A DNA stretch of 42,770 bases, from positions 1-42,770 of IMG/VR virus record IMGVR_UViG_3300013137_001104; one strand, 5' to 3'. Shown here piece by piece: positions 2,222-19,723 of the stretch. The notes beneath the pieces are model-generated. The model saw only the letters and a program-made list of their open reading frames with translations. It ran no database searches and had not been told where the DNA came from. This DNA comes from a virus. The stretch's first letter is position 1, and each line of letters opens with the position of its first letter. A program made the position numbers and the translations under genes.

Positions 2222-3160
2222 TTACGCTGTGACGGAACCCTCTTTGATTCCTTTCAGCCGCGCCACCGATCTGGGCCGGATCACACCGAGAGTGACATAC
2301 CATTCAACCCTGGTCCGGAAGACCGGTTTGCTCTGCTGCTCGCCAAGATCGCGGACATCCATTTCCGAGGACTGCAGACCCAGCACACCATTCTCTGCGA
2401 AGCTCACGCAGTAAATGGAGGTCGACGTTGCCTTGGTGGAGGCATTGGGCCCGAGCTCGTCGAACGCCATGATGTCCGTGTTGTCCTCGTCTTTGTCAGC
2501 AATGAGGATCGGCAGGTCATTGTACTGCGTCACCCGACGTCCGAAGGCATCGAGCGCGTAGGTGATGTACCCACCAACGTTCTGCGACCGAGCCGCTGCT
2601 GACAGCAGGCGCCGCATGGTCTTGTTCATCAGAAGGTGCGTTGGATCTTCGACTGCATCGATTGCTTCATCCAGTTTGGCGAGAGTCAAGGCGGTAGAGA
2701 GTGTGGTTGCCGAAGCGTGGATCAACTGGTCACCGGTGCAACGGACCTGCAACCCATCGAACGATTTTGGATCGTTCGTCACATCCCCTTTGATAATCGC
2801 CTTGGTCAGACTGAGAGACAGGGCCTTGATTTTCATCTGCTCCTGCGTGGATCTCTGATTGGCGCCCGCGGTCTTGACAAGGAACACATCGACGTCCAGA
2901 TCACCACCTGCGATTGCCAGCGATTCAACAACCGGTTCGAGTTCACCGGTGCTCTCCGAATAACCTTCGTTAACGCCCCTGAAAGCCACCCCGGGGAGCA
3001 TCTTCTCCCGGTTGAACTTCAGTGCGTTGCCCTGGATGTCCTCAAAAGGCATATACTGCAGGATGTCGCTGTTCTTGGCGAACAGTTCCATAACAGTGGC
3101 CTTTAGAGCTTCATCTCTCCCTAACGCGAGTTTTGCTGCCTCAATCAGTGTGAGCGCCAT
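2222..3160 (-). CDS. Major capsid protein, HK97-fold
   Basis: A 312-residue shell protein. The N-terminus (EAAKLALGRDEALKATVMEL, LQYMPFEDIQGNALKFNRE) matches the N-arm and E-loop region of a widespread HK97-fold major capsid protein family. The middle contains the ligand-free P-domain pattern (LSLTKAIIKGDVTNDP, then LDEAIDAVED). The C-terminus has the A-domain strands ending in VEWYVTLGVIRPRSVARLKG. It follows the scaffold-like gene and precedes the cement gene, the canonical order. Translation starts at an ATG after AGGAGGTAATG, one of the strongest ribosome sites here, fitting high expression. A hairpin terminator lies about 50 nt upstream on the same strand. Confidence 0.9.
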   Translation of the reverse strand: MALTLIEAAKLALGRDEALKATVMELFAKNSDILQYMPFEDIQGNALKFNREKMLPGVAFRGVNEGYSESTGELEPVVESLAIAGGDLDVDVFLVKTAGANQRSTQEQMKIKALSLSLTKAIIKGDVTNDPKSFDGLQVRCTGDQLIHASATTLSTALTLAKLDEAIDAVEDPTHLLMNKTMRRLLSAAARSQNVGGYITYALDAFGRRVTQYNDLPILIADKDEDNTDIMAFDELGPNASTKATSTSIYCVSFAENGVLGLQSSEMDVRDLGEQQSKPVFRTRVEWYVTLGVIRPRSVARLKGIKEGSVTA

Positions 3161-3326: not shown

Positions 3327-4097
3327 TTATGCTTTTTGCCCAAGGCTCCCTTCGCCGTGAATCATTCTGAGTCTCTCTCCTGGAGGCACTTTGGAAAGAT
3401 CGAGCTTTCCCTGAACCCCTTTGTTCCCTGCATTTCCGGCTCCGCCGGATCCACCCGAGCTCTCAAAGAGGAACGGCGCCGATTCAGCCAGAATGGTTGC
3501 CCATTCATCGAATGTCATAGGATTCTTTCCATCCTTGCCGAATAACAATCTGTCCCCTTCCTTCGGCACCGGCTTGCCTTCCTCTAACCGCCATACCCTT
3601 TTCCCTCTGGCGATGATGTCCTGCATTGCATCTTTCCTGACTCCACCGACCGCGGTCACTGCCTTTGTGATTTCTGAATCAATCAGCACTTCGGAGAGGC
3701 GCTCGTTGGTCTTCGTTAAAGCGACATCCTTGTCATCGACCGCCTTCTTGAGGGCGGAAAGCTGGGATTCAAAATCTGCCCGCATCCGTTCAACCTTCTG
3801 TGCAACCAATTCGTCGATCTTTCCCGCTTCGATCATTTTCTTGTCTTCGATCAACTGGAGCTTCTTTTTCATCTCTGCGATCTGTGCGGGGTCACCGATG
3901 TCTTTGAGTTTGGCCTCCAGTTCTTCCTTCTGCTTCATAAGGGCAATGTTGTTGTTCCGAAATTCATCGAGCTTTTTCTTTCCTTCAACATCTTCCTCAG
4001 TCTGGAGATAGAACTTGCCATCACCTCCCACTTTGTACAGGGATCGAAACACCTCCTCGACCTCTTCTAACTTCGCGACCATCAACTTAAGTGCCAT
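3327..4097 (-). CDS. Scaffold-like coiled-coil head assembly protein
   Basis: A 256-residue protein immediately upstream of the capsid gene. Residues 50-145 are a charged heptad-rich coiled coil (KQKEELEAKLKDI, LIEDKKMIEAGKIDELVAQK). Residues 150-210 form a small folded part (AVGGVRKDAMQDIIARGKRV, MTFDEWATIL). A glycine/serine linker near residue 217 and a short C-terminal segment (LSKVPPGERLRMI) follow. This architecture, low cysteine content and location directly before the capsid gene are typical of phage scaffolding proteins, which template procapsid assembly and leave or are cleaved. No protease motif is seen. The ribosome site AAGGAGATGTAAAA supports the ATG at 4097. Confidence 0.72.
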   Translation of the reverse strand: MALKLMVAKLEEVEEVFRSLYKVGGDGKFYLQTEEDVEGKKKLDEFRNNNIALMKQKEELEAKLKDIGDPAQIAEMKKKLQLIEDKKMIEAGKIDELVAQKVERMRADFESQLSALKKAVDDKDVALTKTNERLSEVLIDSEITKAVTAVGGVRKDAMQDIIARGKRVWRLEEGKPVPKEGDRLLFGKDGKNPMTFDEWATILAESAPFLFESSGGSGGAGNAGNKGVQGKLDLSKVPPGERLRMIHGEGSLGQKA

Positions 4098-5022: not shown

Positions 5023-8000
5023 TTATTTTCCAACGATGACATCTTCAAGTCGTCGTCCGTCGGGCCATTGATAATACTTATTATCTTTGAAAAACTGAAT
5101 GATCTTTTGAACCTGATCCCGAGGAACAACCATCTTCTCAAAATTTTTGTCAAAGATCGAAAGCGATTGTTTAAAGTTGGTTTCGTTCCTACCCCTTTTC
5201 GCATTACCAACCCAATCATCGATGGTAGTTTTGCGGTTGCTTTTGATAAAGTCTTCCCCGCACTCACCAAAAACATCCCTGTTATACGAAAGCGCATCCA
5301 CTCTTGCCATCACATCAGACCGCCAAACCAACCCATAACCTTCATTTGATTTGGTTTGGCTAACGATGCGGGTGAATACGGAATTGCCACCCCCTGTCGC
5401 CATATCACTTTCTGGAGACGTACGACTCCAATCAAATCCTTTTCGGAATTTGTCAACAGTCGCAGTAAGATCCCCTCCATTATTAACGACCTTTTCAATC
5501 ATTACATCGTAGTCTGTTCCGGACCATAATTGATGTCGTATACGATACTTTTCCTTGAAATCCTCCCACTCTGGACCATTCAAATCAGGCCTGTATCTAT
5601 TCACCTTTCCGACATCAAATGCCGTCGCAATACCCTCTGGTTTATATTCAGAAACCTTAGTAATATCATACCCAGCCTTCTTGGACAACTCCCTTTGTAG
5701 ATACTCAATTTGCTTTTCTGCCGATTCATACGATGAAACATTGGAAATCAACGCTCGTCCAAAGTTGTCATTACGTGCATATGCTATCTGTTTGAGATAC
5801 ATCAATTCATCCTCAGCAGCAGTAGCACGTGTCAGATCGACCTTCAAACGGTCCTGAAGAACAGACATGATTCTTTCAATATCGATTGTCTGGTTGCCCG
5901 ATGTTTCTGCTCGCACCAATCCGCGGTGGGAGAACCAGATGTCGTCGGTGTTTGGCCAATACTTTACCTTGACACCATCAATCTCGGCCTCCAAATATTT
6001 ATCTTTCAATGCACGAATCACTTCATTTTTCTGTTGCGCAAATCCCTTTATATTTGTCTTTACATACATGGCGCCATCAGACTTAGTAAATGCAATCCCC
6101 GTTTCTATCTTTGTTACCTTGGGTGGAATGGCCTTTATGTTTCTAAACTTAGTTAATGCCTCTTTGAAGGTTGTATCATCGGGCATCTTGTATTTCCTGC
6201 CCTCTCCGGTTGTGATCACTTCTTTCAACCTTTCCAGCCAAGGTTTATAATGCTTCGCCATGGCGTCAACATCTGCATTGGAGAAAAGAGGATTGGCTTT
6301 TAGCGAATTGATTTCTTTTGCAAAAGCATCCAAAGTGGTTTTTGCTCGTTCAATATCCTTTGCTCGCAATGCTTCACCACCGCGAGATTGCATGGCAATA
6401 CCCCTGAAAGAATCCAAGATTGAAGAATGAAGTTCGTTTGTATTGTAAAAATGCGCCTTTTCAAAACTGGAGGCGTCAGCAATCGCATTCATTTTTTCTG
6501 CACCTTGACCCCGCAACTTGAATTGTACCGCAGTGACAGGCTTACCGGTAACATCCTTCTCATACCACACAAGGAACTGATGATCCTCAATCGCCTCTTT
6601 GTCGACTTTGATCACATACCCGTTAATTCTTGACGTTTCAATCGCCTGGTGCTCAAAATCGGAAACTGCATTTTCCAGATCCTTGGGCGCCTTTGCTATC
6701 GCCTCCTCAACCTTGATGTGGGGGAACTGCTCTTGAATGTATTTCTTCCGCGCAATTAACGTCTCTGCGAGGCGATCGCGCTCCACTTGATTAAGTGGTC
6801 CAAACTCATTAACGAGCTCCCTGATCTGTGAATCCGACACCGAGAGAACCTTGCGTGCTCCAGCATCAAGTTCCGATTGTTTGATTTTTTTGAACACAGC
6901 CGCTGCTTTTGGATTGGTTCTGCCATCTCTCATTGAAGATAATTCCAAAACCTTGTCGCTGAACTGACCGCCTTTGGCACCACCTTGTGCTCTGAATCTC
7001 AACGATCCGCCAACATCAACTCTGACGGCACGGATGCCATCTTTGATTTGAAGGTTATCGTAACTCATACCAACTACGTCCCAGTCACCAAGCCAGGCAT
7101 CAACAACGAAGTCATCATAGATACCCGCTCGCAAAGCCCCAGACTTCAGAAGTTCGGAATTTTTCTCAATCCCGTCAATGATTCTTGATGCAACCGCTTT
7201 CTCGCCATTGGCATTGATGATCTGAAGCTCTGGAACTTCAACGCCAGCAGCCTTGTAAAGCTTGCCCGCAAGGACTTCATTTCTCACCGTCTCCTCATTA
7301 CCTGGCATCTTGATATAGTAGCGCTCTGCAGGATTGTTGATGTTCCTATAAAACCCGCCCGTATTCGATCCCTCTTGTCCGGAATACTTTGTCATACTAT
7401 TGAAGTCAAGAGAGGCAGGCGCTTTCTCAACTACTGGTGACACCGGTTTAATATCAACACCGCTCAGTTGAGCAATTTTCTTGTCAATCTTTGCCTGCGC
7501 CTCCTCGGTTAAGAAATTGTAGGCATCCATCTGACCCTTCGATGCTGCCTTGCCCTTGGCAAGATTCTTGGTGTATTCACCTACAAGAGCAGACTGATTG
7601 GATTTGAACTTTGCAAGATCCTCCGGCAAGTCAAGATTATAAGCCGTCTTTCCCATCTCAACCGTTCCAGTCAATGCGCCTTGCTTCAATGGCGGTGGTA
7701 TGTATTCTGGAACTGCTTTTTCAGTTGCATTCAAACCCATTTGGCCCAATAGATCATCAACAGAGGCGGATGCCGCCTTTGTTGTGGTAAATTCAGAATA
7801 TCCTTTTGCGGATAATTGAGAGAGCGCCTTCTGTTCGACGGTTTTCTCCGCATACCCGAATTGAAACTCTGCGGGAACTTTTGACATCTGTTTTCCGGCC
7901 CATTCCTCAAAATACTTCGCCTTGGTGGATGCGGGTTGCTTTTCCCAGATATAGACGAGTTCCTCTTTTGTATACCCCGTTGTAGATTGCAGATCAATTT

Positions 8001-11000
8001 GATTAAGGTCGAGCCATCCTTTTTTTATCCCATCGTCAAGGAATTCCAATGCATGCGTCTCTGCCTGAGCATCGAGTCCCACAGGTTGGCGAACACCAAA
8101 CTTTCCAGAAAAATATTCTGGCCATGAAATTCCCATCGCATTCTTTTCCGAAGTTGCAATATCGGTCAGGCTCATTGTAAACTTATCGCTGATGGCATAT
8201 GGGTACACCTGGATAACATCAGGATCGATCTTCAATGCATAAAAATCGTCCATGGTATTGATTGAATGGTCAGGCAAACGCTCTAATTGCGACAAAGTTG
8301 TAATCTCATATTTGCTCACAGCTTTGCCTGCTGTAGATCCTGCCTTTATCTCCTCAACCATCTTGATGTCGGATGGACTGAGTAATTCAGCAGGAATCCT
8401 TGCCTTGGCAGCAACCCATTCCTCAAGAAATGGTTTCTTCAGAGAGGTATCAAGGCTTTGCCAGACCTTTGTGGCTTTACTTTTCCATGTAGAAGAAGCA
8501 AGTTCCCATTGATATTTTTTTTCTTCGTCTCCTGTAAATCCTTTCCATGGGGGCGTCTTTATCAAATCAGACAGATCGGTCATCTTTTTCTGTTCTATCA
8601 AATCCAAATCGCTCCAGAGTTTGCCATTGAGCACACCATCGTTTTTTGGCAGATCGGTTACCGCCTGCCACAATCTCTTTTCTGTTGGCCCCATCCATGC
8701 GGGTGGAGGAGAAACGCCAACGTTTGCCCATCCCTTCATGAGTGATTGTTTCACAGAGCTGTCCAACATATTCCAGAGTTCAGTTGACTGTTTTTTGAAC
8801 GCTGGTCCGGAATCAATCCATTCCCATGCTGGTGTTTTCATGTATCCATCAAGGATATTCAGAATATCCTTTTGTTTGACCGTCAGATCGGCAACCAACT
8901 TCCCGGAAATAGATCCAGGCTGACCTGGTATGCCTGTCTTTTTCTTGTAGGTCTCAATCGATTCTTGTAGCCACTTGACCTGGTCTTGAACTTTCATTAC
9001 TTCCAAATCGAATTTCAAGTGCTCCGCAAGCTGTTTAACCGCCTTGCCATCCGATGTGGCCAAAATATTTTTTTTCTCTGTAAGCGCTGTTGCTATTTGT
9101 TTGGCAAGACTTCCTTTTTTGTTTGGAACAAACATCGCCAGTTTCTCATAAGCACCCATCTCACCCCATCCGGGAACCTGGTTTCCAAGTTCATTGAATA
9201 TTGCCGTGCCTTTCTGGCTCCCAGAGAGAAGATTGGCAATCTTCTCTTTGGCAATCTTCTCCAATTCTTTTGCCTTTTCCATGACCGCCGCTGCTTTATC
9301 TTCTCCCTGCCAATACCCGAATCCGGATAGTTTTTTCAACTCTGCGTGTGCAACAGCTTCAGCAGACCCGGGCTTAATTCCCGCAAGATAAGATTCCCAG
9401 CTGTCCTGCGTTGGCTGTTTCATTATCTGATCTTCAAGCCACGATTTCACATCTTGGGGTTTCCACGTCGAGAGGATTTTTTGATTTGCTTCTGCCCAAA
9501 CTGTTTGTCCCTCTGGCATCTTGAGTAGCTTATCGATTTCCTGCAATGAAAACTTGATCTGTTTACCAAGATCACCATCGTAATATGCACGTTGTTCCCA
9601 CGGAGTCAGATCATCCCAATTGGATACCTGTTTCTGCATTGCAGAAAAGACATTTGGTGCCACCTTCTTCTCTGTCTCCAGGTATATCTTGGCATTGCTA
9701 TTGATCAAGTTCGCCTCCTCTTGAATGGCCTTGATCTTTCCTTCTGATCCAAGCGCTTTGAATACCGCACCCTTTACATTGCCGGGAATCGATGGTATAT
9801 CATTCATTGCAATAGATTCTGCAGATCCCGGTTTGATCAAATCAATGAAGAAATCGAATTTTGTGAATAGAGCTTCTTTCTCCGCCTGCACCGCTTTGAT
9901 CTTCACAAGAGGATCTGTCGCGTTGGTGATCGATCCTCTTTTGAATGCATTGACAAATGCCTGTCCTCCATCTGCCGTTGATGTAAGTGCAATCAAATCT
10001 GAATCGGCTTGCGTCTGTAATATTTTAACCTGTTCCGAAAGTTTAGAGTAGTAGGCGATTGGATCATCAATGAATTTGGTTTGGTTATATGCCTTGGAAC
10101 CGATTGTACCAATCTCACTTTGCCACACAGCTATCTGGTCTGCCGCGGCATTGTCCATCTCATACTTCAAATACTGGTACTGCGCGTTCTCACCAAGTTC
10201 CACCAAATTCGGGACTGCTGCGAGTTTCTTTTTTGCAATATCTGCCAATGTGGTATTACTCGCCAGCAATTTCTCTTTCAATGGCACAGCGATCTTGTCT
10301 TGATCGAGCAGCCGGAACCCAATCTTGAAATCACCCTTGCCGAGTTCGAGCGCCTTGGTATATTGTTCAATGAAATCCTGTGCGATCTTTTTATCGATTG
10401 CAGTATTGAGAAGATCGGTCAGTTGATTGGTTGGCACCAAATTGACCGCCTCTGATTCCCATCCCATCATGGTGGGAGAACCACCAGTCTTGACTCCAAC
10501 GTAATAACGAGTTGTCGAAGTCGTCTTCTGATAGTCCCCAAGATGATAGATCGGCCTTGCTTGCAATCCAGTTTCTTCAAAGACTTCCTTGATCGCAGTT
10601 GTTTGCAGATCAATAGGGCCTGGGGCATAAACCTTATCCCATGTGCCTTTGGGGAAAGTATTCTTGTATCCCCCGAATTGATTGGTCGGTGAATTGATCC
10701 AAATCTTGCCAGTCGCTTCATCGACGATAATCATTCCGGAAGAGTTTTTCAATCCCTGCGTTTCTTTCAATGCGGGTTGAAAGAAATCCCCGTACTTAAA
10801 TTCGAGCTTGCCATAGTTGGCTCCTCCTCCTTTGGCACCAGCAAAGGCACCTTCGATGGGATTATACAGGCCAGGAGGTAAAGATTGACCAGGGACGAAT
10901 TTTGCGACTTTTTCCGGGTCATTGATGGTCTTGAGCAGCCGCGCCTCTGCCCTGGCTGCTTTCTCTGCTTCGATTGATTGAACTGCATCCTTGTAAAACT

Positions 11001-12870
11001 GCGTGATCCCGCCTTTCTCTTGAAGGATCTTTCCCACTGTTGGGTCGGCGTTCTTCATCAATTCGATCTGTTGAGAAAACGCAGGCAGTGCTCCTGCTTC
11101 TGCAGCGGCAGTAACCATCAACGCTTCGAGCGCAACTTCCTTCTTTGCCAAGATGTCACCAAGGTTCGCCGCCAATTGTTTCAAGGTGAGAGGGTTGCCA
11201 GAGTTATCGATCAAATCCATCATGTCCAACTTATTCTCTGACCACATCTTCCACTTGCCTGGTCCGAGGACGCTTTTCTGGAATTCGACGGATTGAGTTT
11301 TCAGCCAATCATTGTATGTGAGGTTTGAGGGGACTGGACCATTCATCGATGCCCGTTCACCAGCCGGGATATTGTCAAGCTCTTTGATTTTGGAGGGGGG
11401 AAGTTGTGACTTGGGACCAGCCAATGCTGCCCATGATTTTGTAATCGGGATGGTTGTACTTCTGCAATTGTGGACAACAAATCCACGAGCGATATAACTT
11501 TCGTCTTCTTCAACACTAAAATTATAAAGCGTTCGGGCCTTTTTCAATCTCCATTTATTTATAACACAAATTTCATATTCGGAAAACTGGTAAAGTTCTT
11601 TATGGTTGCTCGCTATTCTGAGCACCTCTTTTTCAACACATCCAAAATTTTTATTTATTTGGTCTTCTCCAAATCTAAAAACTTGCCATCCCTCGCCTTC
11701 AATATTTTTTTGACGGATATTGTCTTTTTCTTTATCCTTATGCCAATACGATCCATCAACTCGCTTACACTTATGAGACAACAAAACAACCTTGTCCCCA
11801 CTCTTCAATTCTCCTGCACTAATCCATCCTTTATCAGTCAAAATGGGATGACCAGAAGTAACAGAAATGGGCAAATGACTTCCGCGGCCTTTCAATGCAA
11901 ATTTTACGACATTTGGCGTTTGAAGTGGCGTCCGAATAATTTCAGTAACATTTCTGAATCTTCCCTTATGAGTAAGAACAAAATCTCCGGTTTTTATGTT
12001 TCTGATTGCAACCCAACCTTTTGATGTGTAAATAGGAGTTTGTCCATCAATAAAACAATTAAAATGAAATGGCGGGCCTCCGGGGTATGGGAAACCATGA
12101 CCGATGGGCACAAGATCAAAAGTCCAACGTTTACCATCGAGTGCTCTGCACAACTCCGTCGTTCGATCATCAAGAGTCGCAACCACTTCAAACCCATCAA
12201 GGACGTCTACATTGGCTTTGTATGTTTCCAATCTGACTGCATTCGAAACCTGGGAAACGCTCGTCCTCACCAGCGCTGTTGCTTCTCTCTTGGTAACGCT
12301 CATGACTCCTGGGGTTGTTTTGGTGCCTCTGACTCGATTGATCAAATCACCAACGGTCTCTCCCTGCACAAGTCCTATCTGAATCGCTTGAGTACCTGCA
12401 GCCATCGATGCAGAGAGCTTTGCTTTTGTATCCGCGGATTGCTTCTCCCACCACTTCCCGATGGTATTACCTTGAATCATCGTATTTTCAACAATTGCCT
12501 TGACTCCTGAAGGAGTGAGATTGATATCAAATAGATCGGCGCCAACAGAACCATTGAATGAATCAACAACATTCTTGGCTTGCAAACCCCCCATCTTTTT
12601 CAACTGGGAATCAATGTGCTTGTTAATATTGCCATAACCGGAATCAAGGATTGCGCTGATTTCCTCGTTGAGCTTTTCAAGACGTGCCGTCTTGTATTTG
12701 GTCATCGTGGGAGCGGTTGGATCATTCTTGGCGATAGCAGCGACAATCTCGTCTTGGGTACCTTGCAAAAGAGATTGCACCCGCTTGTTCAGACTTGCGG
12801 AATATTGATCAAAATATACGCCATCCTTAACAGCAGCGTTGTAAATCTTGTCGGGTATATTTTCTGGCAT
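5023..12870 (-). CDS. Giant MuF 'polyvalent' head protein with intein, Nudix and kinase-like domains
   Basis: A 2615-residue protein just after the portal gene (3-nt gap). Residues 195-271 and 469-477 form a MuF/SPP1 gp7-like domain (VRTSVSQVSNAVR, LDDRTTELCRALDGKRW, PPFHFN joined to CRSTTIPI), split by an intein at 272-468. Residues about 705-815 are a Nudix domain: FPKGTWD and KEVFEETGL with E762, E765, E766. Residues 900-1700 are alpha-helical with repeats (KPGSAE at 1013-1018 and 1166-1171; tryptophan-rich TPxW...EW modules). Residues about 1825-2010 look like a HipA/PI3K-type kinase: YYIK (K1853), R1862-NE1864, and the VDVGGS motif at D1951. Residues 2440-2615 form a conserved-looking C-terminal domain (TGGGNSVFTRI, NETNF) whose function I cannot name. 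MuF polyvalent proteins are packaged and injected with DNA, so these domains may act in the host early in infection; that role is inference. Confidence 0.9.
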   Translation of the reverse strand: MPENIPDKIYNAAVKDGVYFDQYSASLNKRVQSLLQGTQDEIVAAIAKNDPTAPTMTKYKTARLEKLNEEISAILDSGYGNINKHIDSQLKKMGGLQAKNVVDSFNGSVGADLFDINLTPSGVKAIVENTMIQGNTIGKWWEKQSADTKAKLSASMAAGTQAIQIGLVQGETVGDLINRVRGTKTTPGVMSVTKREATALVRTSVSQVSNAVRLETYKANVDVLDGFEVVATLDDRTTELCRALDGKRWTFDLVPIGHGFPYPGGPPFHFNCFIDGQTPIYTSKGWVAIRNIKTGDFVLTHKGRFRNVTEIIRTPLQTPNVVKFALKGRGSHLPISVTSGHPILTDKGWISAGELKSGDKVVLLSHKCKRVDGSYWHKDKEKDNIRQKNIEGEGWQVFRFGEDQINKNFGCVEKEVLRIASNHKELYQFSEYEICVINKWRLKKARTLYNFSVEEDESYIARGFVVHNCRSTTIPITKSWAALAGPKSQLPPSKIKELDNIPAGERASMNGPVPSNLTYNDWLKTQSVEFQKSVLGPGKWKMWSENKLDMMDLIDNSGNPLTLKQLAANLGDILAKKEVALEALMVTAAAEAGALPAFSQQIELMKNADPTVGKILQEKGGITQFYKDAVQSIEAEKAARAEARLLKTINDPEKVAKFVPGQSLPPGLYNPIEGAFAGAKGGGANYGKLEFKYGDFFQPALKETQGLKNSSGMIIVDEATGKIWINSPTNQFGGYKNTFPKGTWDKVYAPGPIDLQTTAIKEVFEETGLQARPIYHLGDYQKTTSTTRYYVGVKTGGSPTMMGWESEAVNLVPTNQLTDLLNTAIDKKIAQDFIEQYTKALELGKGDFKIGFRLLDQDKIAVPLKEKLLASNTTLADIAKKKLAAVPNLVELGENAQYQYLKYEMDNAAADQIAVWQSEIGTIGSKAYNQTKFIDDPIAYYSKLSEQVKILQTQADSDLIALTSTADGGQAFVNAFKRGSITNATDPLVKIKAVQAEKEALFTKFDFFIDLIKPGSAESIAMNDIPSIPGNVKGAVFKALGSEGKIKAIQEEANLINSNAKIYLETEKKVAPNVFSAMQKQVSNWDDLTPWEQRAYYDGDLGKQIKFSLQEIDKLLKMPEGQTVWAEANQKILSTWKPQDVKSWLEDQIMKQPTQDSWESYLAGIKPGSAEAVAHAELKKLSGFGYWQGEDKAAAVMEKAKELEKIAKEKIANLLSGSQKGTAIFNELGNQVPGWGEMGAYEKLAMFVPNKKGSLAKQIATALTEKKNILATSDGKAVKQLAEHLKFDLEVMKVQDQVKWLQESIETYKKKTGIPGQPGSISGKLVADLTVKQKDILNILDGYMKTPAWEWIDSGPAFKKQSTELWNMLDSSVKQSLMKGWANVGVSPPPAWMGPTEKRLWQAVTDLPKNDGVLNGKLWSDLDLIEQKKMTDLSDLIKTPPWKGFTGDEEKKYQWELASSTWKSKATKVWQSLDTSLKKPFLEEWVAAKARIPAELLSPSDIKMVEEIKAGSTAGKAVSKYEITTLSQLERLPDHSINTMDDFYALKIDPDVIQVYPYAISDKFTMSLTDIATSEKNAMGISWPEYFSGKFGVRQPVGLDAQAETHALEFLDDGIKKGWLDLNQIDLQSTTGYTKEELVYIWEKQPASTKAKYFEEWAGKQMSKVPAEFQFGYAEKTVEQKALSQLSAKGYSEFTTTKAASASVDDLLGQMGLNATEKAVPEYIPPPLKQGALTGTVEMGKTAYNLDLPEDLAKFKSNQSALVGEYTKNLAKGKAASKGQMDAYNFLTEEAQAKIDKKIAQLSGVDIKPVSPVVEKAPASLDFNSMTKYSGQEGSNTGGFYRNINNPAERYYIKMPGNEETVRNEVLAGKLYKAAGVEVPELQIINANGEKAVASRIIDGIEKNSELLKSGALRAGIYDDFVVDAWLGDWDVVGMSYDNLQIKDGIRAVRVDVGGSLRFRAQGGAKGGQFSDKVLELSSMRDGRTNPKAAAVFKKIKQSELDAGARKVLSVSDSQIRELVNEFGPLNQVERDRLAETLIARKKYIQEQFPHIKVEEAIAKAPKDLENAVSDFEHQAIETSRINGYVIKVDKEAIEDHQFLVWYEKDVTGKPVTAVQFKLRGQGAEKMNAIADASSFEKAHFYNTNELHSSILDSFRGIAMQSRGGEALRAKDIERAKTTLDAFAKEINSLKANPLFSNADVDAMAKHYKPWLERLKEVITTGEGRKYKMPDDTTFKEALTKFRNIKAIPPKVTKIETGIAFTKSDGAMYVKTNIKGFAQQKNEVIRALKDKYLEAEIDGVKVKYWPNTDDIWFSHRGLVRAETSGNQTIDIERIMSVLQDRLKVDLTRATAAEDELMYLKQIAYARNDNFGRALISNVSSYESAEKQIEYLQRELSKKAGYDITKVSEYKPEGIATAFDVGKVNRYRPDLNGPEWEDFKEKYRIRHQLWSGTDYDVMIEKVVNNGGDLTATVDKFRKGFDWSRTSPESDMATGGGNSVFTRIVSQTKSNEGYGLVWRSDVMARVDALSYNRDVFGECGEDFIKSNRKTTIDDWVGNAKRGRNETNFKQSLSIFDKNFEKMVVPRDQVQKIIQFFKDNKYYQWPDGRRLEDVIVGK
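11467..12057 (-). other. Mini-intein in the MuF domain with nuclease remnant
   Basis: A 197-residue in-frame insertion (residues 272-468) splits the motif that in MuF domains reads PPFHxNCRSTT. It starts CFIDGQTPIY (block A), has the block B TxxH at T338-H341 (VTSGHPILT), and ends SYIARGFVVHN before +1 Cys469, so all class 1 splicing residues (Cys1, TxxH, HN, Cys+1) are present. Residues 371-404 (VDG, D383, then GWQVFRF) match the C-terminal half of a DUF559/Vsr-type nuclease but lack its catalytic core. It is therefore probably splicing-competent but no longer mobile by itself. Confidence 0.88.
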
Positions 12871-12873: not shown

Positions 12874-14340
12874 TTATTCTCCCGTATTTGGTTTTTGTTG
12901 ATCCTCCGGAGGCATGTTGCCATCGCCAGGCATGAAATTGTTATTGGAAATGGGTGCCGGCTCTGGCTTGGTCGCTTCGATCTTGGTCTTCTCCTCCTCA
13001 ATTGTTCTGCCAGGAGGTAGAACTTCTCCAACAGTTAATTGATACAAGAAAGTATCCAGACTGAGTGCTCCTGCCTGCCACGATTGAAGTAGTGCAGTAA
13101 TCTCCTGAGGCGTGAGCTTCGCAGCGACAAAATCGCGATTCATCTTGACTTCCGCGTTGGCGGGAATCTTTAACCAATCACCCAAAAGATTGATTGCCTT
13201 CTGGATACCTTGCTCAACCGAAGTCACGATGTTGGCCAAGGTGGCAGTATCACCAGAATACCGCATCTGGACTGTCTCTGCCGCCTCTGCCGCCTTTTTC
13301 TGCTCCTCCAACATTCTGGCACCCATGACCGCCATTTGCCTCTCTAACTGCAGGAGCGCTTCTCTCACCTCTTTCAGCCCCGCTCCAGAAAACTCAAGAA
13401 ACCCGCACTTGGCTTCTGGATTTTCAGAAATCCAAGCCTTCAAAGCACCAAGATAAAGTTCCGTGCCCTTTTCAAATCCTGCGGCCCATGGAGTCGGAAT
13501 TGCACAATAATGTAACCCGTGGTAATAGTCAACATTCACCTGCCAGTGTTTGATATTCAGATTGGCCAGATCCATCAATGGGGGATTGGTTGGCACTGGA
13601 TTATTCGACATGGCGCCAAAGAAAACAAAGGGGATGAAAGTCATCCGATCCCCTCTGATCGCTGGGAGTATATCATCACCGATTTGTGACCACATCTCTT
13701 TTCCTCTTGAATCTTGTGATTTCTGGTAGATTCTCACGACGAGCAGTCCTTCCTCTATCTGAAATAACCTGACCTGCTCAACCTCAACCAATTCCAGCGT
13801 GTTATCTGGATTCTTTTTATAAACTGCCTCTCCCAATGCGAGCATGATCAACTTCGCCTCGTCTCCAACCTGTTGTGTTTCAAAATTCAGAATTGCACCA
13901 GGCGAATACAGTGCAAAGTATGGAATGGCATCAGGGGAAACGACTTCTCCCGTTGCCGCCGGCGCCATGTCTGCCAAGATCCCATAGTACCCGAACTCGA
14001 TCACGTTAAGCGTTACAAGACGTATGACCTCTTGGATCGATTCTCCAGCCAATGTGATAGACGGCAACAGATCATTGATCTTGGCTGCCACTTTGATCGA
14101 TGGCTCTTTTCTCACAATGGCACCGGTCAACCCTTCGGCCGTCCTCAGAAATGCGTTGAAGAATGATCCTCGATCTTTATACGAAGTGTACTCCATGGGA
14201 GTCTGACCAGAGAGTTTTGGCAGATATAGTTCACCCGCATCTTTCACCCCATCCTCACCTTGCAAGATGGTTTGAATCTTTGTCCATTTCAGTTGCTGCG
14301 CCTTGTAATGGATCCCTTTGGTATTCGGAACAAAGTCCAT
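12874..14340 (-). CDS. Portal protein, DUF4055-like
   Basis: A 488-residue portal candidate. The N-terminal half begins PNTKGIHYKAQQLKWTKIQT with a YKDRGSFFNAFLRTAEGLTG segment. The central part carries PFVFFGAMSNNPVPTNPPL, then MDLANLNIKHWQVNVDYYHG and LHYCAIPTPWAAGFEKG, the most recognisable stretch of DUF4055-type phage portal proteins. A long coiled helix follows (EVREALLQLERQMAVMGARM), then a proline-rich, disordered tail. Portal proteins form the dodecameric ring for DNA passage and contact terminase. It lies directly upstream of the MuF gene, as in most tailed phages; terminase is about 10 kb upstream, separated by the sugar island. A GGGGAGGTATAAAA site precedes the ATG. Confidence 0.87.
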   Translation of the reverse strand: MDFVPNTKGIHYKAQQLKWTKIQTILQGEDGVKDAGELYLPKLSGQTPMEYTSYKDRGSFFNAFLRTAEGLTGAIVRKEPSIKVAAKINDLLPSITLAGESIQEVIRLVTLNVIEFGYYGILADMAPAATGEVVSPDAIPYFALYSPGAILNFETQQVGDEAKLIMLALGEAVYKKNPDNTLELVEVEQVRLFQIEEGLLVVRIYQKSQDSRGKEMWSQIGDDILPAIRGDRMTFIPFVFFGAMSNNPVPTNPPLMDLANLNIKHWQVNVDYYHGLHYCAIPTPWAAGFEKGTELYLGALKAWISENPEAKCGFLEFSGAGLKEVREALLQLERQMAVMGARMLEEQKKAAEAAETVQMRYSGDTATLANIVTSVEQGIQKAINLLGDWLKIPANAEVKMNRDFVAAKLTPQEITALLQSWQAGALSLDTFLYQLTVGEVLPPGRTIEEEKTKIEATKPEPAPISNNNFMPGDGNMPPEDQQKPNTGE

Positions 14341-14367: not shown

Positions 14368-15276
14368 TTATCTTTCCATTTCTCTCTTGAAATCTTTCAT
14401 CCCATCAATGTAAGAATATCTTGGAGACCACCCGAATTCCCGCTGCGCTTTGGAGATGTCAAATACGCAACTTACTTTTCTGTACTCAGGTATTTCCGGA
14501 CGGTAAAACAAAAGGCTTCTCTTTTCTACACAAAACGCTTCGATGATCGCCAGTGCCTCTTGCTCAATCGTCAATCCGATTCCCGTTCCGATATTGTAAA
14601 GCCCCCGGGCGGCGGGATTGTCAACGGCCATTATAATCGCCCGGCAGACATCCTTCACGTAGATCATGTCTCGCCTGGTTGTTGGCGGGTCCCCCCAAAT
14701 CTCAATGTCCTCCCCTTTGATCGCCCTTTGCACAAATTGGTGAAACACACAATTGTGCTTTGCATCCTGACTGCCGAACCCCCTGATGTTCGCCAGGCGC
14801 AGACTCACGCCGCGAAGGACATGCTGGCGATCATAGGCGGTTACCATATTGAGCGCAGTGATCTTGCTCGCAATGAATGGGATTGAGTTCTTGTTGCAAT
14901 CCCAACTTCCTGTTCCAAAATACTGTGGAGTCTCGCTGCGCATTTTTGTTTCTGGGAAACTATGGAGCAAATTGGTATCAGAATGTGTCATAGCATAAAC
15001 AAACGTCCCGATGCCGTTCCTGCGAGCAAATTCCAGCGCATTGAAAGTCCCAATGGCATTCGTCATAAAGTATTGCTCGGGTTGATGGCCATCGATCATC
15101 AATAACGCGGCAAGATGAACCACGGCGTTGATGTTCTGCCCGAATGAATTCTGGATGGGAATCCTGACATCCAGTTCTCCTTTGCCTGGCGCCAAAACCT
15201 CCCATCCAATCCCCTGCATCTCTCTCGTGAGATACTTCCCTATGAACCCCTGTCCCCCGGTTACAAGAACTTTCAT
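14368..15276 (-). CDS. NAD-dependent nucleotide-sugar epimerase/dehydratase (extended SDR)
   Basis: A 302-residue extended short-chain dehydrogenase. ATG 15276 is chosen over a GTG 6 nt upstream because AAGGAG sits 5 nt before it. The Rossmann motif is VTGGQGFIGKYL at residues 5-16. An AVVHLAAL strand follows. The catalytic region is atypical: no plain YxxxK is obvious after TGSWDCNKNSIPFIASKI, where YxxxK may have become FIASK. The C-terminus has substrate-domain motifs (RRDMIYVKDVCRAII, GLYNIGTG). It resembles RmlD/GalE-type enzymes acting on dTDP- or UDP-sugars. It is the most distal sugar gene, between tRNA-Pro and portal. Substrate unknown; a missing tyrosine, if real, would suggest altered chemistry. 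Confidence 0.85.
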   Translation of the reverse strand: MKVLVTGGQGFIGKYLTREMQGIGWEVLAPGKGELDVRIPIQNSFGQNINAVVHLAALLMIDGHQPEQYFMTNAIGTFNALEFARRNGIGTFVYAMTHSDTNLLHSFPETKMRSETPQYFGTGSWDCNKNSIPFIASKITALNMVTAYDRQHVLRGVSLRLANIRGFGSQDAKHNCVFHQFVQRAIKGEDIEIWGDPPTTRRDMIYVKDVCRAIIMAVDNPAARGLYNIGTGIGLTIEQEALAIIEAFCVEKRSLLFYRPEIPEYRKVSCVFDISKAQREFGWSPRYSYIDGMKDFKREMER

Positions 15277-15291
15277 CTTCACTCCTTAATC

Positions 15292-15368
15292 TGGTCCGGG
15301 CAGTAGGATTTGAACCTACGACCTCGTGCTCCCAAAGCACTCACGCTACCTGGCTGCGTCATGCCCGG
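15292..15368 (-). tRNA. tRNA-Pro(UGG)
   Basis: A complete cloverleaf reads on the minus strand: 7-bp acceptor stem CCGGGCA/TGCCCGG, D-arm ACGC...GCGT, anticodon loop TTTGGGA giving anticodon UGG, T-arm GTAGG-TTCAAAT-CCTAC, discriminator A and an encoded CCA end. The only flaw is an A-G mismatch at the top of the anticodon stem (27-43). UGG reads proline codons, chiefly CCA. It lies alone between an epimerase gene and two tiny basic ORFs. Confidence 0.95.
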
Positions 15369-15381
15369 TTTTGGTCTTGAA

Positions 15382-15456
15382 TTATTTTCCCTTGCCTTTT
15401 TTGATCACGATCGTCTGCCCGTTGCTTCTCAATAACGTAACTGATTTCTTTGCCAT
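15382..15456 (-). CDS. Tiny basic protein (24 aa)
   Basis: A 24-codon ORF, MAKKSVTLLRSNGQTIVIKK followed by GKGK. It has a GGAGG ribosome site 7 nt before the ATG, which overlaps the TAG stop of the 51-residue ORF upstream, indicating coupled translation. It ends 14 nt before the tRNA. Lysine-rich with a short beta-like middle; nucleic-acid contact is possible but unproven. Its size makes the call uncertain, but the ribosome site and packing favour a real gene. Confidence 0.5.
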   Translation of the reverse strand: MAKKSVTLLRSNGQTIVIKKGKGK

Positions 15457-15467
15457 CTTTCATCCTC

Positions 15468-15623
15468 CTATTTGACAATCCTCCCGCCGCCACCCTTCCA
15501 TTTGAATTTCAATTTTTTACCCTGCGCTTTGGCCTGCTTACGTATTGCCTGTTGGAATGCATTATAGGACATTGGTTTTCCTTTTCCGCTTCCTTTCCGT
15601 CTCCCTGATCCTGGGCCTCCCAT
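15468..15623 (-). CDS. Small basic Gly/Lys-rich protein (51 aa)
   Basis: A 51-residue ORF beginning MGGPGSGRRKGSGKGKPMSY, with a central helix (NAFQQAIRKQAKAQGKK) and a basic glycine-rich end (WKGGGGRIVK). ATAGGAGGGTTATT precedes the ATG. It lies just after the FemAB-like gene and its stop codon lies inside the ribosome site of the next ORF. The N-terminal GGPGSGRRxG pattern is common at the start of small phage and prophage proteins. Probable nucleic-acid-binding protein by charge only; no family recognised. Confidence 0.62.
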   Translation of the reverse strand: MGGPGSGRRKGSGKGKPMSYNAFQQAIRKQAKAQGKKLKFKWKGGGGRIVK

Positions 15624-15636
15624 AATAACCCTCCTA

Positions 15637-16707
15637 TCATTCCCCGGTGGTTTCGAGCAATGAATACGGCATCACATAGAAGTAACGATAATTCTCAACA
15701 AGCCATTGAGGAGTCACTTCAAGATCCATTGGTGGGGTATGATACACCTGCGTGTAATAGGTGTACTCAGATTCCTGTGCTCCAAATTGCGTCTTGAAAT
15801 GATATACCCCTTGCTGACCAGGAAGTTTCGTGCCTCCCCAATTCCACCACTTCATTCCCCTTTGTGCCGCATCTCCCATTGCGGAAAATATCAACAAATT
15901 CATCGGGCATAAATGCCGATAATCCTCGACGATTGTCGGGCAGATATACTCGACCGTCTTGTTGAAATATTCAACGAGCAATGCCGCGCATCTATTGGCA
16001 TTAGAATCATTTGTCAGTGCGACGTATAGTTTATAGTCATGTCCTTTCTTGAAATACTTCCGGATCACATCAAACTCTTTGTCCTTGACGGGACCATCAA
16101 CTGCCGTCATTCCGATCCGATGTTGTTCTTTCAGAAACGCCCAGTCGTCAGGCCCATAAGACTCATACGCACAGCAGGTCTGCATCGACTTGATAATCTG
16201 ATTCCTGGCCTTTTGATGAATCAGATTCAGCAGATCCTTTGCAAACTGATCAGGACCCGTGAAAACAGGCAACGGAGTGATCATCCCAATCCTCGTATCC
16301 GGGAACACATCTCTTTTTGCAAAGAAGGCGTCATACATTTCTTGATCTTGATTGGGAGGAGTGATGAAAGTTGAAGAAAAGCACCCTGTCCATTTTGCAA
16401 TATTGTCAAATCCCTGCAACAGATACATCTCTGCCTGTGTGTCGTCTGCAAGGATTCCCGGATTGGATCCAAACCAAGGCAATGAATTCAGAACAGGTCC
16501 CAAAGGACCTTTCTTGATAAATGTCGGCAGCACCCCAACAATCTCGTCGTCCTCTATCGCCAGCAAATAATAGGGGAGCGCATCTGGACACATAACCCGA
16601 ATGAAGTCCCGGAATACCAGTGACGAGTTAAAGAGTGAATGATCGTGTTTCATCAAATATGCCGAGTATGCTGCATCTTTCTCTTGCGTCAATACCTCTA
16701 CTTTCAT
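15637..16707 (-). CDS. FemAB/GNAT-fold acyl- or aminoacyl-transferase
   Basis: A 356-residue protein with the double-GNAT layout of FemAB/Acetyltransf_6 proteins. The N-terminal half has YYLLAIEDDEIVGVLPTFIK. The C-terminal half has the diagnostic helix-strand-loop LLIFSAMGDAAQRGMKWWNW followed by GGTKLPGQQGVYHFKTQFGA, where the G-x-x-x-FK-x-x-FGA motif is characteristic. Such proteins add amino acids (from aminoacyl-tRNA) to peptidoglycan or acyl groups to exopolysaccharides and sugar nucleotides. In this island of nucleotide-sugar enzymes, modification of an amino-sugar is the likeliest role, by inference. GGGGGG precedes the ATG, and a candidate promoter motif lies 20 nt further upstream. 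Confidence 0.78.
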   Translation of the reverse strand: MKVEVLTQEKDAAYSAYLMKHDHSLFNSSLVFRDFIRVMCPDALPYYLLAIEDDEIVGVLPTFIKKGPLGPVLNSLPWFGSNPGILADDTQAEMYLLQGFDNIAKWTGCFSSTFITPPNQDQEMYDAFFAKRDVFPDTRIGMITPLPVFTGPDQFAKDLLNLIHQKARNQIIKSMQTCCAYESYGPDDWAFLKEQHRIGMTAVDGPVKDKEFDVIRKYFKKGHDYKLYVALTNDSNANRCAALLVEYFNKTVEYICPTIVEDYRHLCPMNLLIFSAMGDAAQRGMKWWNWGGTKLPGQQGVYHFKTQFGAQESEYTYYTQVYHTPPMDLEVTPQWLVENYRYFYVMPYSLLETTGE

Positions 16708-16726
16708 TGCACCCCCCTTTTTTTGG

Positions 16727-16738
16727 ATAATAAGTCAT
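16727..16738 (-). promoter_or_regulatory. Candidate phage promoter motif ATGACTTATTAT
   Basis: Minus-strand ATGACTTATTAT matches 9 of 12 positions of the GTGACATATAAT form of the motif and lies in the gap between the upstream epimerase and the FemAB-like gene, about 20 nt before the latter's ATG. It is a weaker member of the set. Confidence 0.3.
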
Positions 16739-16749
16739 TGTTTCTGTGA

Positions 16750-17691
16750 CTAAAAGATGTTTTCCTCGGCCAGGTAATACTTTATTGTCTCTTTCAATCC
16801 CTGATCCATTGGAACGGAATGTTCAAACTTCAGCACATCTTTCGCCTTGATCACATTTGCAATATGACGGCGAACATCTCCTGGTCGTGCCGGTTGGTAA
16901 TCGATCTGTCTATATTGGCACCCCATCAGTTCCCGGATTTCTTTCACAAGCCAGTTGATCGAATACTCATGGCCAGAGGCAACGTTGATTACCTCCCCTT
17001 TCAGATCCATGCGTTTACCCATCATAACTGCGGCCATGGCGGTATCTTTCACAAAGATGTAATCTCTGGTTTGTTCGCCATCTCCGTAGACTATGATCGG
17101 ATCTCCGCACTTGATTCGATTGATCGTCAAAGGAATGATGCCGGCATAGGATCCTGCATTCTGTCTGGGCCCATAGTTATTGAAAGGACGAATGATCGAT
17201 ATGTCGCAACCAAACGTTCTCACATAGGACAGGCAGATCATATCCCCCGCAGCCTTTGATGCAGCATAGGGCGTCGATGCTTTCCATGGATGGTTCTCAC
17301 ACATTGGCTCATACTGCGCAGATCCATAAACCTCCGAAGAGGAGAAGTGTACCATCTTTTTGAACAGTCCCATTCTCTGCATCTCACAAAGATTCTGAAC
17401 CATCGCAATATTTTGTTGTACATTTCCGTAAGGGTACTTGAGGGAATGCGGGAGAGGAACAACCGCAAGATTGTAAACCAAACCGGGCTTGAAATCGACA
17501 ATGAATCTGTACAAATCTTCCCAGTTTGAGACATCGACGTCTGCCCAAATGGCAGTGGGATTGATATTCTCTGGCTTTCCAAGAAAGAAATTATCAACAC
17601 AGCAGACAACATCAACCTGGTCGGCTAACAAATCGACCAGGTGACTCCCGATGAATCCCGCACCGCCTGTAACCATCACCCTCTTGATCAT
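16750..17691 (-). CDS. GalE/uronate-epimerase-like NAD-dependent sugar epimerase
   Basis: A 313-residue extended SDR. The start at 17691 overlaps the upstream stop (ATGA), so it is translationally coupled. Motifs are VMVTGGAGFIGSHLVDLL (Rossmann, residues 4-21), VYNLAVVPLP, SSSEVYG with the catalytic serine, YAASK (Tyr/Lys), RPFNNYGPRQ, GDGEQTRDYIFVKDTA and GEVINVASG. These define a UDP-sugar 4-epimerase/decarboxylase-type enzyme (GalE, WbpP, ArnA-like). All catalytic residues are present, so it should be active. Candidate substrates are UDP-GlcNAc, UDP-GlcA or their derivatives. It neighbours the DegT aminotransferase and FemAB-like genes. Confidence 0.92.
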   Translation of the reverse strand: MIKRVMVTGGAGFIGSHLVDLLADQVDVVCCVDNFFLGKPENINPTAIWADVDVSNWEDLYRFIVDFKPGLVYNLAVVPLPHSLKYPYGNVQQNIAMVQNLCEMQRMGLFKKMVHFSSSEVYGSAQYEPMCENHPWKASTPYAASKAAGDMICLSYVRTFGCDISIIRPFNNYGPRQNAGSYAGIIPLTINRIKCGDPIIVYGDGEQTRDYIFVKDTAMAAVMMGKRMDLKGEVINVASGHEYSINWLVKEIRELMGCQYRQIDYQPARPGDVRRHIANVIKAKDVLKFEHSVPMDQGLKETIKYYLAEENIF

Positions 17692-17990
17692 CCCCGATAT
17701 TCCTCCCAATGATGGAATGCGCCCATTCCAAGGAATTTGGCATCATCGAAGCCACAAATGTCTTCGGGATTTTCTGCAAGTGCATCAAACGTAACCATCT
17801 CCGTATACTCGACGATCTGCCCCCCAGCGAGTTCCCCGTATGTTCGATCATGTCCTTGATTTCTGAGTAACCGCCATTCTTTTTCAGAGAACCAAAGAGC
17901 ACCCGACAATGTTGTGACTGCTTGTGGGTGCTGGCGCAGATATTCCATGACCATTCTCGTTACTTCCTCATGGCTTGCTGTTGTGCCCAT
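17688..17990 (-). CDS. Hypothetical protein embedded in the sugar cluster
   Basis: A 100-residue protein with GGAGGAATGGT before its ATG. It overlaps the aminotransferase gene by 23 nt and the epimerase start by 4 nt. The sequence is acidic with a tryptophan-rich middle (LWFSEKEWRLLRNQG) and an acidic C-terminus (FHHWEEYRG). No motif or membrane segment is visible. Tight packing on both sides suggests co-expression with the sugar enzymes, but no function can be assigned. Confidence 0.72.
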   Translation of the reverse strand: MGTTASHEEVTRMVMEYLRQHPQAVTTLSGALWFSEKEWRLLRNQGHDRTYGELAGGQIVEYTEMVTFDALAENPEDICGFDDAKFLGMGAFHHWEEYRG

Positions 17991-19101: not shown

Positions 19102-19235
19102 TGCTCCTCCTTCTGTTTTATATTGTCTCGCTTCATCTCACATCCTGCGCATTCCCTCTTTATGTACGGGCATAGGTGATTGGGCAGAAAGGATTCGCAA
19201 TGAGGCATCAATCCAAAAATCTTTGGAACGGTCAT
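19098..19235 (-). CDS. Small cysteine-rich protein
   Basis: A 45-residue ORF starting MTVPKIFGLMPHCESF and containing four cysteines in C-x8-C-x6-C-x2-C spacing (HCES...LCPYIKRECAGCEMK), suggesting a small metal-binding or Fe-S fold. It fills the gap between the acetyltransferase stop and the aminotransferase start, overlapping the latter by 4 nt (ATGA). The ribosome site is weak. A longer in-frame start would overlap the acetyltransferase coding end and is less likely. Confidence 0.5.
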   Translation of the reverse strand: MTVPKIFGLMPHCESFLPNHLCPYIKRECAGCEMKRDNIKQKEEQ

Positions 19236-19243
19236 AATTGAAT

Positions 19244-19702: not shown

Positions 19703-19723
19703 GCTTTCCCCCTTCTCTGATTC

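What the first reader, a model, noticed from the sequence alone, without database searches (positions are those of the whole stretch)
5023..12870. 2615-residue MuF polyvalent protein with Nudix, kinase-like and unknown effector domains
A capsid MuF domain is joined to a Nudix hydrolase (E765, E766), long helical repeats, a HipA/PI3K-like kinase and a C-terminal GGG...VFTRI...NE domain. MuF-linked polyvalent proteins are thought to travel in the virion and act in the host on entry. The combination of Nudix and kinase could target nucleotide signals, capped RNA or host enzymes.
Basis: partly seen in the sequence, partly recalled or inferred. Interest (0 to 1): 0.78.

Follow-up and report, generated by a model that had tools for sequence, protein, structure and literature searches.

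The report
Phage head protein carrying three enzymes
A virus of bacteria carries a giant head protein that probably delivers several enzymes into its host, and one of them belongs to a little-described kinase family that repeatedly travels with Nudix and ADP-ribosyltransferase enzymes in phage heads.

Summary
The 2615-aa ORF lies on the minus strand. It is a MuF head protein (interrupted by an intein at residues 272-468), then a Nudix domain with its ExxEE residues (E762, E765, E766), a tandemly duplicated linker, a HipA/PI4K/CtkA-fold kinase, and a conserved C-terminal module (CTD) with no Pfam or PDB sequence match. The kinase fold was predicted in the window protein itself; the Nudix fold in a family member. 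The new part is the context. The kinase is a large family that Pfam hardly recognises, with catalytic residues intact in 116 of 116 covered members. Its C-terminal neighbour is either an ADP-ribosyltransferase or this CTD, never both (36/36/0 of 99 tails). This Nudix subfamily is fused to or within 2 kb of the kinase in 58 of 64 cases, including 480-568-aa two-domain proteins. Homologues are annotated as particle-associated in Yersinia phage fHe-Yen8-01. Best reading: a portal-proximal, head-packaged effector carrier whose enzymes act in the host at entry. MuF-effector fusions, including MuF-Nudix, are known; the kinase family as a hub and the ART/CTD exchange appear undescribed in the papers searched. 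Delivery, substrates and CTD chemistry are inferred.

The parts
5023..12870 (-). whole ORF, 2615 aa MuF polyvalent protein (P0001)
12058..12870 (-). MuF domain, N-terminal part (residues 1-271)
   Evidence: PF04233 3.6e-10, phrog_241 2.3e-91; 49% identity to L009 over 1-272
11467..12057 (-). intein, residues 272-468: Cys1 at 272, block-B SGHP at 339, His467-Asn468, Cys+1 at 469; carries only the C-terminal part of a DUF559-type nuclease
   Evidence: PF07591, PF13403, DUF559 profile positions 59-106 of 109; intein_Cterm TIGR01443; residues; uninterrupted sequence at this point in L009 and L015. Which residues splice is recalled knowledge.
11101..11466 (-). MuF domain, C-terminal part (about residues 469-590), CRST motif
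   Evidence: alignment A7; 44% identity to L009 over 468-589
10369..10953 (-). Nudix domain with its N-terminal extension (residues 640-834), ExxEE at 762/765/766, further Glu at 805
   Evidence: PF00293; family alignment A2; residue counts
7471..10368 (-). linker with two tandem duplications (residues 835-1800; repeats 1012-1149/1165-1305 and 1312-1400/1405-1504)
   Evidence: no phage record matches residues 871-1795
6721..7425 (-). HipA/CtkA-fold kinase domain (residues 1816-2050): K1854, E1865, D1931, N1939, D1952
   Evidence: alignment A1, residue counts, fold match
5026..6663 (-). C-terminal module (residues 2070-2615), shared with L009, L015 and, in part, Pseudanabaena phage Pan1
5026..5673 (-). 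CTD core (about residues 2400-2615): H2446, GG2493-2494, FTR2499-2501, Y2529, E2563, PDGR2603
   Evidence: alignment A6, 35 sequences
12874..14340 (-). portal protein gene directly upstream
   Evidence: phrog_145 1.3e-109, DUF4055
3327..4097 (-). head scaffolding protein downstream
   Evidence: phrog_206 1.2e-35
2222..3160 (-). major head protein downstream
   Evidence: phrog_212 1.3e-85

Best explanation
This is a head-borne effector carrier. The MuF domain (made whole by intein self-splicing) sits next to the portal inside the head, and the roughly 2000-residue tail is packaged with the DNA and ejected with it. In the new host the tail supplies several enzymes: a Ser/Thr-type kinase of HipA/CtkA fold that phosphorylates host protein(s), a Nudix hydrolase that cleaves an NDP-X compound (dinucleoside polyphosphate or ADP-ribose type), and a C-terminal effector (CTD) that stands in the place where sister proteins carry an ADP-ribosyltransferase and probably also modifies a host macromolecule. 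Kinase and Nudix work as a linked pair. SHOWN here by computation: the domain order, the kinase fold, the Nudix family, intact catalytic residues, the recurrent kinase-Nudix and kinase-ART/CTD linkage, and the portal-MuF-scaffold-major-head gene order. INFERRED: splicing, packaging, ejection, catalysis and substrates.
For: Head gene order in the window and in L009. 26 of 27 kinase-CTD relatives have Pfam MuF. Portal families are found directly upstream: phrog_113 in 24 and phrog_145 in 6 of 55 upstream ORFs (the call was given 55 of the 58 picked). Catalytic K, D, N, D intact in 116 of 116 covered members of 119; Nudix E762, E766, E805 in 113 of 113 covered of 115. Nudix-seeded scan: kinase in the same ORF in 30 and within 2 kb in 28 of 64 dereplicated ORFs. 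Kinase-seeded scan: 12 of 119 fused, 15 Nudix ORFs within 2 kb, 0 further away in 752 kb. Minimal two-domain Nudix-kinase proteins of 480-568 aa. Tails after the kinase: ART 36, CTD 36, both 0, neither 27 of 99. These links need at least 9 (CTD/ART) and 11 (Nudix link) changes on the kinase tree. Homologues of the kinase and Nudix parts are labelled particle-associated in OR620963.
Against: No virion proteomics exists here for this virus, and the fHe-Yen8-01 label is the depositor's word; no paper was found for it. No substrate is known. Kinase-CTD proteins mostly lack Nudix (of 45 CTD-type ORFs, 3 fused and 1 near), so the pair is not obligatory for this branch. Profile comparison did not link the CTD to ARTs, though the positive controls failed as well. 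The window Nudix carries a 5-residue insertion just before its catalytic helix relative to sister proteins. The kinase tree is a quick FastTree with 45 of 158 inner branches drawn open for weak support.
Confidence: 0.62

Rival explanations
1. Counter-defence reading: the Nudix and CTD act mainly on small nucleotide signals or NAD-derived immune messengers (ADP-ribose derivatives, ApnA) and the kinase inactivates a defence protein. The protein is an injected anti-defence kit rather than a host-takeover kit.
For: Nudix family profile best matches in the PDB are Ap4A hydrolase 3i7u (3.6e-14) and, by fold of family member L161, MutT1-type enzymes (Z 16.7, rmsd 1.8, 121 aligned). Reviews propose that phage Nudix and MuF-fused enzymes degrade host nucleotide signals (PMC9503650 section 24 and find passages, PMC7824862 find passages).
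Against: No defence system or target is linked in the window. Frequent linkage to macromolecule-modifying ARTs (49 of 64 Nudix ORFs have an ART in the same ORF or within 2 kb) fits modification of proteins or nucleic acids at least as well.
Confidence: 0.35
2. Polymorphic-toxin reading: the tail is a MuF toxin released into or against competitors, with a small downstream gene as immunity.
For: MuF toxins with ART (14% of 191) and metallopeptidase (20%) domains are described (PMC5576092, find passages). Small ORFs follow the gene here (134 and 142 aa).
Against: The 134-aa neighbour is also found in L009 (29% identity) together with the head genes, so it may be a head protein. No toxin-immunity pairing was tested. 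That paper's main text has no occurrence of 'kinase' or 'nudix'.
Confidence: 0.15
3. Producer-cell reading: the enzymes work before packaging, in head assembly or nucleotide supply, and the tail is only an internal head scaffold or ejection aid.
For: Lies between portal and scaffold genes; long repetitive linker.
Against: The same kinase occurs C-terminal to other carriers: Phage_min_cap2 (L192, L193), a WGR protein (L178), and in two-domain Nudix-kinase proteins. An assembly-specific role does not predict that. ART and CTD are effector-like.
Confidence: 0.15

Closest known systems
MuF polyvalent proteins / MuF polymorphic toxins (PMC5512222, PMC5576092)
   Same: N-terminal MuF head domain next to the portal gene, fused to several enzymatic domains; a metallopeptidase-like motif in sister proteins L009 and L015; zeta toxin in 2 of 27 relatives
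   Different: Carries a HipA/CtkA-fold kinase plus a new CTD; is split by an intein; about 2000 residues of tail
MuF-Nudix fusions and head-packaged ARTs (PMC9503650, sections 24 and 27 read)
   Same: Nudix domain fused to a MuF head protein, predicted to be packaged and injected
   Different: That paper places most phage Nudix domains in NudE-like or NadM-like clades. This subfamily matches Ap4A-hydrolase and MutT1-type Nudix best and is almost always linked to the kinase. 'hipa', 'pi3k', 'protein kinase' and 'ctka' do not occur in that text.
Kinases of polyvalent proteins (PMC5512222, section 10 read)
   Same: Kinase-superfamily domains inside large injected proteins
   Different: Those are described as STYK-type, having lost the C-terminal subdomain, with a conserved His and an insert before the Asp. 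The present family has a predicted C-lobe (helices after residue 176 of the model), a DAWLxNWD..DN motif without that His, and is nearest in fold to CtkA, PI4K, CotH and HipA.
Helicobacter CtkA and HipA/HipT kinases
   Same: Fold (Z 16.7, 10.8 and 11.9 with 214, 199 and 199 residues aligned); HipA_C Pfam match in 3 of 27 relatives
   Different: 13-19% identity in the structural alignments; embedded in phage head proteins; no HipB-like partner was looked for
MuF intein of Escherichia phage Snoke (MK931441)
   Same: Intein inside a MuF head protein
   Different: Annotated there as 273 residues; here 197 residues with only a piece of the nuclease

Membership tests
MuF head proteins | MuF domain above Pfam cut-off | tested here: met
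   PF04233 41 bits against cut-off 29.6; phrog_241
MuF head proteins | Gene directly after portal, before scaffold and major head protein | tested here: met
MuF head proteins | Present in the virion | not testable with these tools
   needs mass spectrometry; homologues labelled particle-associated in OR620963
Nudix hydrolases | Nudix profile match above cut-off | tested here: met
   PF00293 23.8 bits, cut-off 21.1
Nudix hydrolases | Catalytic ExxEE of the REUxEExGU core | tested here: met
   KEVFEETGL, E762/E765/E766; invariant in A2 (8 of 8). The first Glu of the classical Nudix box (recalled motif) is not seen in this family.
Nudix hydrolases | Nudix fold | tested here: met
   family member L161 modelled, not the window protein: 3i7u 4.6e-7, MutT1 Z 16.7, rmsd 1.8, 121 aligned
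HipA/PI4K/CtkA-type kinases | Kinase fold of this type | tested here: met
   model of window residues 1800-2615: CtkA Z 16.7, PI4KIIalpha Z 14.0
HipA/PI4K/CtkA-type kinases | Lys in N-lobe, catalytic Asp with Asn, metal-binding Asp | tested here: met
   K1854, D1931, N1939, D1952 intact in 116 of 116 covered of 119; assignment of roles to these residues is by motif (recalled)
HipA/PI4K/CtkA-type kinases | Sequence profile match (HipA_C) | tested here: inconclusive
   none in the window protein; 3 of 27 relatives
Polyvalent-protein STYK kinases of PMC5512222 | Loss of the whole C-terminal subdomain; conserved His before the catalytic Asp | tested here: not met
   C-lobe helices predicted; motif DAWLGDWD has no such His; definition from section 10
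ADP-ribosyltransferases (for the CTD) | ART sequence profile | tested here: inconclusive
   0 of 35 CTDs match an ART family in Pfam; hhalign to ART, DarT and KptA sets gave nothing, but these known ART families did not find each other either
ADP-ribosyltransferases (for the CTD) | ART fold | tested here: inconclusive
   model covers the CTD but the kinase filled the match list (one search says other parts are barely tested)
ADP-ribosyltransferases (for the CTD) | H-Y-E type triad | tested here: inconclusive
   candidates H2446 (33 of 35), a Tyr in 31 of 35 that is Ser2497 in the window, Y2529 (33 of 35), E2563 (35 of 35); geometry not tested
Inteins | HINT domain, Cys1, His-Asn end, Cys+1, uninterrupted sequence in relatives | tested here: met
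   splicing itself not tested

The most novel reading that the evidence does not exclude
Phages carry a little-described HipA/CtkA-fold kinase family as the constant hub of head-borne effector proteins. On its C-terminal side sits either an ADP-ribosyltransferase or the CTD, which would be a new ART-like family, and beside it a dedicated Nudix hydrolase. The three would act as one pathway on entry: a nucleotidyl or ADP-ribosyl mark is placed on a host target, trimmed by the Nudix domain to a phosphoribosyl or phosphate remnant, and used or completed by the kinase-fold enzyme. This would be a multi-step host modification injected as a single polypeptide.
Probability: 0.3. Interest if true: 0.82.

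Novelty: new variant of a known kind. Interest (0 to 1): 0.64.

Why it matters
MuF effector proteins are a main candidate route by which phages put enzymes into a cell with their DNA, yet few of their enzymes have been tested. If the linkage found here reflects one pathway, it gives a family-level prediction (kinase, Nudix and ART/CTD act together) and a practical entry point: 480-568-residue proteins that hold only Nudix and kinase (L161, L164, L060/L062, L068/L077, L074/L075, L079) can be expressed and assayed without the giant carrier. It also flags a conserved C-terminal enzyme candidate with no Pfam or PDB sequence match.

Tried and rejected
Protein-only relative searches with single window domains in viral contigs found 1, 0 and 0 relatives; alignments were needed.

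CTD as an R-S-E ADP-ribosyltransferase, DarT or KptA: hhalign gave nothing, but ART, DarT and KptA also failed against each other, so the test cannot decide. A PARP set could not be built (0 of 200 genomes, control silent).

Kinase, Nudix and CTD profiles against PDB sequences: Nudix 48 hits at 0.01, kinase and CTD none credible. PHROGs: 0 families in window residues 1800-2615 and one unnamed family in 1 of 35 members.

The first self-comparison for repeats with blastp returned nothing; a Smith-Waterman comparison replaced it.

A claim that Nudix is universal in kinase-CTD proteins was rejected (3 fused and 1 near of 45). Tallies of raw ORFs were replaced by dereplicated ones. In one search, 20 of 119 ORFs were dropped because the C-terminus was missing or short; among the 27 'neither' tails several look ART-like by eye (L199, L200, L202, L206), and L187 and L191 end in Nudix. 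Upstream-gene scan: 55 of 58 upstream ORFs were given; the 3 left out lie upstream of two-domain Nudix-kinase genes. The search for related loci returned at most 80 loci per call, so 80 of 412 kinase and 80 of 103 Nudix matches were examined.

Literature: searches for MuF with Nudix and polyvalent protein, fHe-Yen8-01 (56), MuF toxins, Nudix with ART, virion and HipA, MuF with intein, CtkA with HipA and phage, HipA with Nudix and ADP-ribosyl, ART, Nudix, capsid, injected and kinase, and Yersinia phage particle gave no description of this kinase family in the listings and passages I saw. The library holds open-licence papers only. What I saw of papers: PMC9503650 sections 24 and 27 plus find passages; PMC5512222 section 10 plus find passages; PMC5576092 and PMC7824862 find passages only; all others search listings only.

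Full report
What is there. The ORF at 5023-12870 is on the minus strand and encodes 2615 residues without a stop. The portal gene ends 3 nt before it. Two small ORFs, the scaffold gene and the major head protein gene follow. Residues 1-271 and 469-about 590 form a MuF head domain. Residues 272-468 are an intein: HINT profiles, an intein C-terminal motif, Cys272, SGHP at 339, His467-Asn468 and Cys469. Two relatives with the same MuF start, L009 and L015, read straight through the same place. Only the last half of a DUF559-type nuclease remains in it, so homing activity is probably lost (inference). L033 carries a HINT segment at the equivalent MuF position, and phage Snoke has an annotated MuF intein.

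Nudix. Pfam places a Nudix domain at 714-831 above its cut-off. The family alignment runs from about residue 640 to 834. The sister proteins are separate Nudix genes in the six named phage records that I opened and an ORF of an unnamed phage record, L014. E762, E765 and E766 form the ExxEE core. E762, E766 and E805 are present in 113 of 113 covered of 115 family ORFs, and all three core Glu are invariant in 8 of 8 rows of A2. The closest solved structures are Ap4A hydrolase by profile (3.6e-14) and MutT1-type and Ap4A hydrolases by fold of family member L161 (Z 16.7, rmsd 1.8, 121 aligned).

Kinase. Pfam, NCBIfam and PHROGs do not recognise residues 1816-2050 of the window protein. AlphaFold of residues 1800-2615 with an alignment of 35 rows has mean pLDDT 87.1. 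Its kinase part matches CtkA (Z 16.7), PI4KIIalpha (14.0), CotH (13.9), HipT (11.9) and HipA (10.8), over 199-217 residues at 3.2-4.0 A. Three of 27 relatives match HipA_C in Pfam. K1854, D1931, N1939 and D1952 are intact in 116 of 116 covered of 119 dereplicated members. So the family appears to be under selection to keep a working site.

C-terminal module. Residues 2070-2615 are shared with L009 and L015 and partly with the MuF protein of Pseudanabaena phage Pan1, in which I find MuF and CTD parts only. The core, about 2400-2615, has 14 invariant positions in 35 sequences. No Pfam family (0 credible of 35) and no PDB sequence matches it. Its fold was predicted with confidence but not tested against known folds, because the kinase filled the lists.

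Architecture series. L009 is MuF, an HExxH metallopeptidase-like segment (motif, recalled; no Pfam hit), kinase, CTD. L015 is MuF, metallopeptidase-like segment, Nudix, kinase, CTD. The window is MuF, Nudix, duplicated linker, kinase, CTD. Two of 27 relatives match a zeta toxin; MuF is present in 26 of 27. So there is a variable slot between constant MuF and constant kinase-CTD.

Linkage. Kinase-seeded scans gave 412 relatives of 433 pattern matches in viral contigs (80 kept) and 57 of 108 in genome contigs; 119 kinase ORFs remain after dereplication. Nudix is fused in 12 of 119. Fifteen further Nudix ORFs lie within 2 kb (384 kb searched) and none further off (752 kb). An independent Nudix-seeded scan gave 64 dereplicated ORFs: kinase fused in 30, within 2 kb in 28, further in 1, absent in 5, of which 3 have short flanks. 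Minimal proteins of 480-568 aa hold Nudix and kinase alone. After the kinase come an ART in 36, the CTD in 36, both in 0 and neither in 27 of 99 tails. In four ORFs (L041, L073, L179, L181; L073 and L181 look identical) the segment that follows the kinase in CTD proteins is followed by an ART instead, which is direct evidence of exchange at one slot. On a quick tree of 161 kinases the CTD/ART label changes at least 9 times and the Nudix link at least 11. Clustering by descent is strong, so counts of ORFs are not independent events; the change counts are the better measure.

Delivery. Evidence is indirect. Portal families appear directly upstream (phrog_113 in 24, phrog_145 in 6 of 55). In the record of Yersinia phage fHe-Yen8-01 the ART-kinase protein, the small gene after it and the Nudix protein all carry a particle-associated label. 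The label is the depositor's, and no paper was found.

Mechanism. The best-supported account is a head-packaged carrier that delivers kinase, Nudix and CTD with the DNA (0.62). That the enzymes act jointly is supported by linkage, not by chemistry. That the CTD is ART-like rests on slot exchange and on a possible H-Y-E pattern (H2446 33 of 35; a Tyr in 31 of 35 that is Ser2497 here; Y2529 33 of 35; E2563 35 of 35). Profile tests could not decide.

Novelty. MuF-effector fusions, MuF-Nudix fusions and head-packaged ARTs are in print (PMC5512222, PMC5576092, PMC9503650). The polyvalent-protein kinases described in 2017 differ by definition. I found no description of this kinase family or of its tie to Nudix and ART in the searches listed under Tried and rejected. 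I therefore call it a new variant of a known kind.

Noticed in passing
L187:7182-9332, L188, L191, L204: Pseudomonas syringae-group chromosomal proteins with this kinase and this Nudix in one chain, and in L187 an ART-like N-terminus (read by eye), i.e. the same combination outside a phage head gene.
   Followed up: partly
L199, L200, L202, L206 (bacterial MAG contigs): About 685-aa proteins with this kinase and a C-terminal segment that looks ART-like by eye but escaped my ART profile.
   Followed up: no
L033:6343-11361: Another kinase-CTD MuF protein with a HINT/intein segment at the same conserved MuF site, suggesting that this site is a recurrent intein target.
   Followed up: partly
L009:6590-6860 (approximate) and the equivalent region of L015: HExxH metallopeptidase-like segment in the slot before or in place of the Nudix domain; Pfam does not recognise it in L009.
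   Followed up: no
BFVD A0A6J5S481: A 1201-aa protein named HK97 portal in an uncultured phage matches the kinase-CTD model, a possible portal-kinase fusion.
   Followed up: no
window 14368-24421: Between portal and terminase lies a sugar cassette: two nucleotide-sugar epimerase-like ORFs, a DegT aminotransferase, a GFO/IDH oxidoreductase, and a FemAB-like ORF.
   Followed up: no
window 15292-15368: tRNA-Pro (TGG) gene on the minus strand, inside that cassette.
   Followed up: no
window 36601-42023: 1111-aa DNA polymerase (phrog_405) with a clamp-loader-like ORF beside it.
   Followed up: no
L002, L003, L005, L006, L007 and L008: gene between the ART-kinase and Nudix genes: A gene of 159-167 aa of unknown function sits between the two in all six records; in L002 it is labelled particle-associated.
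   Followed up: no
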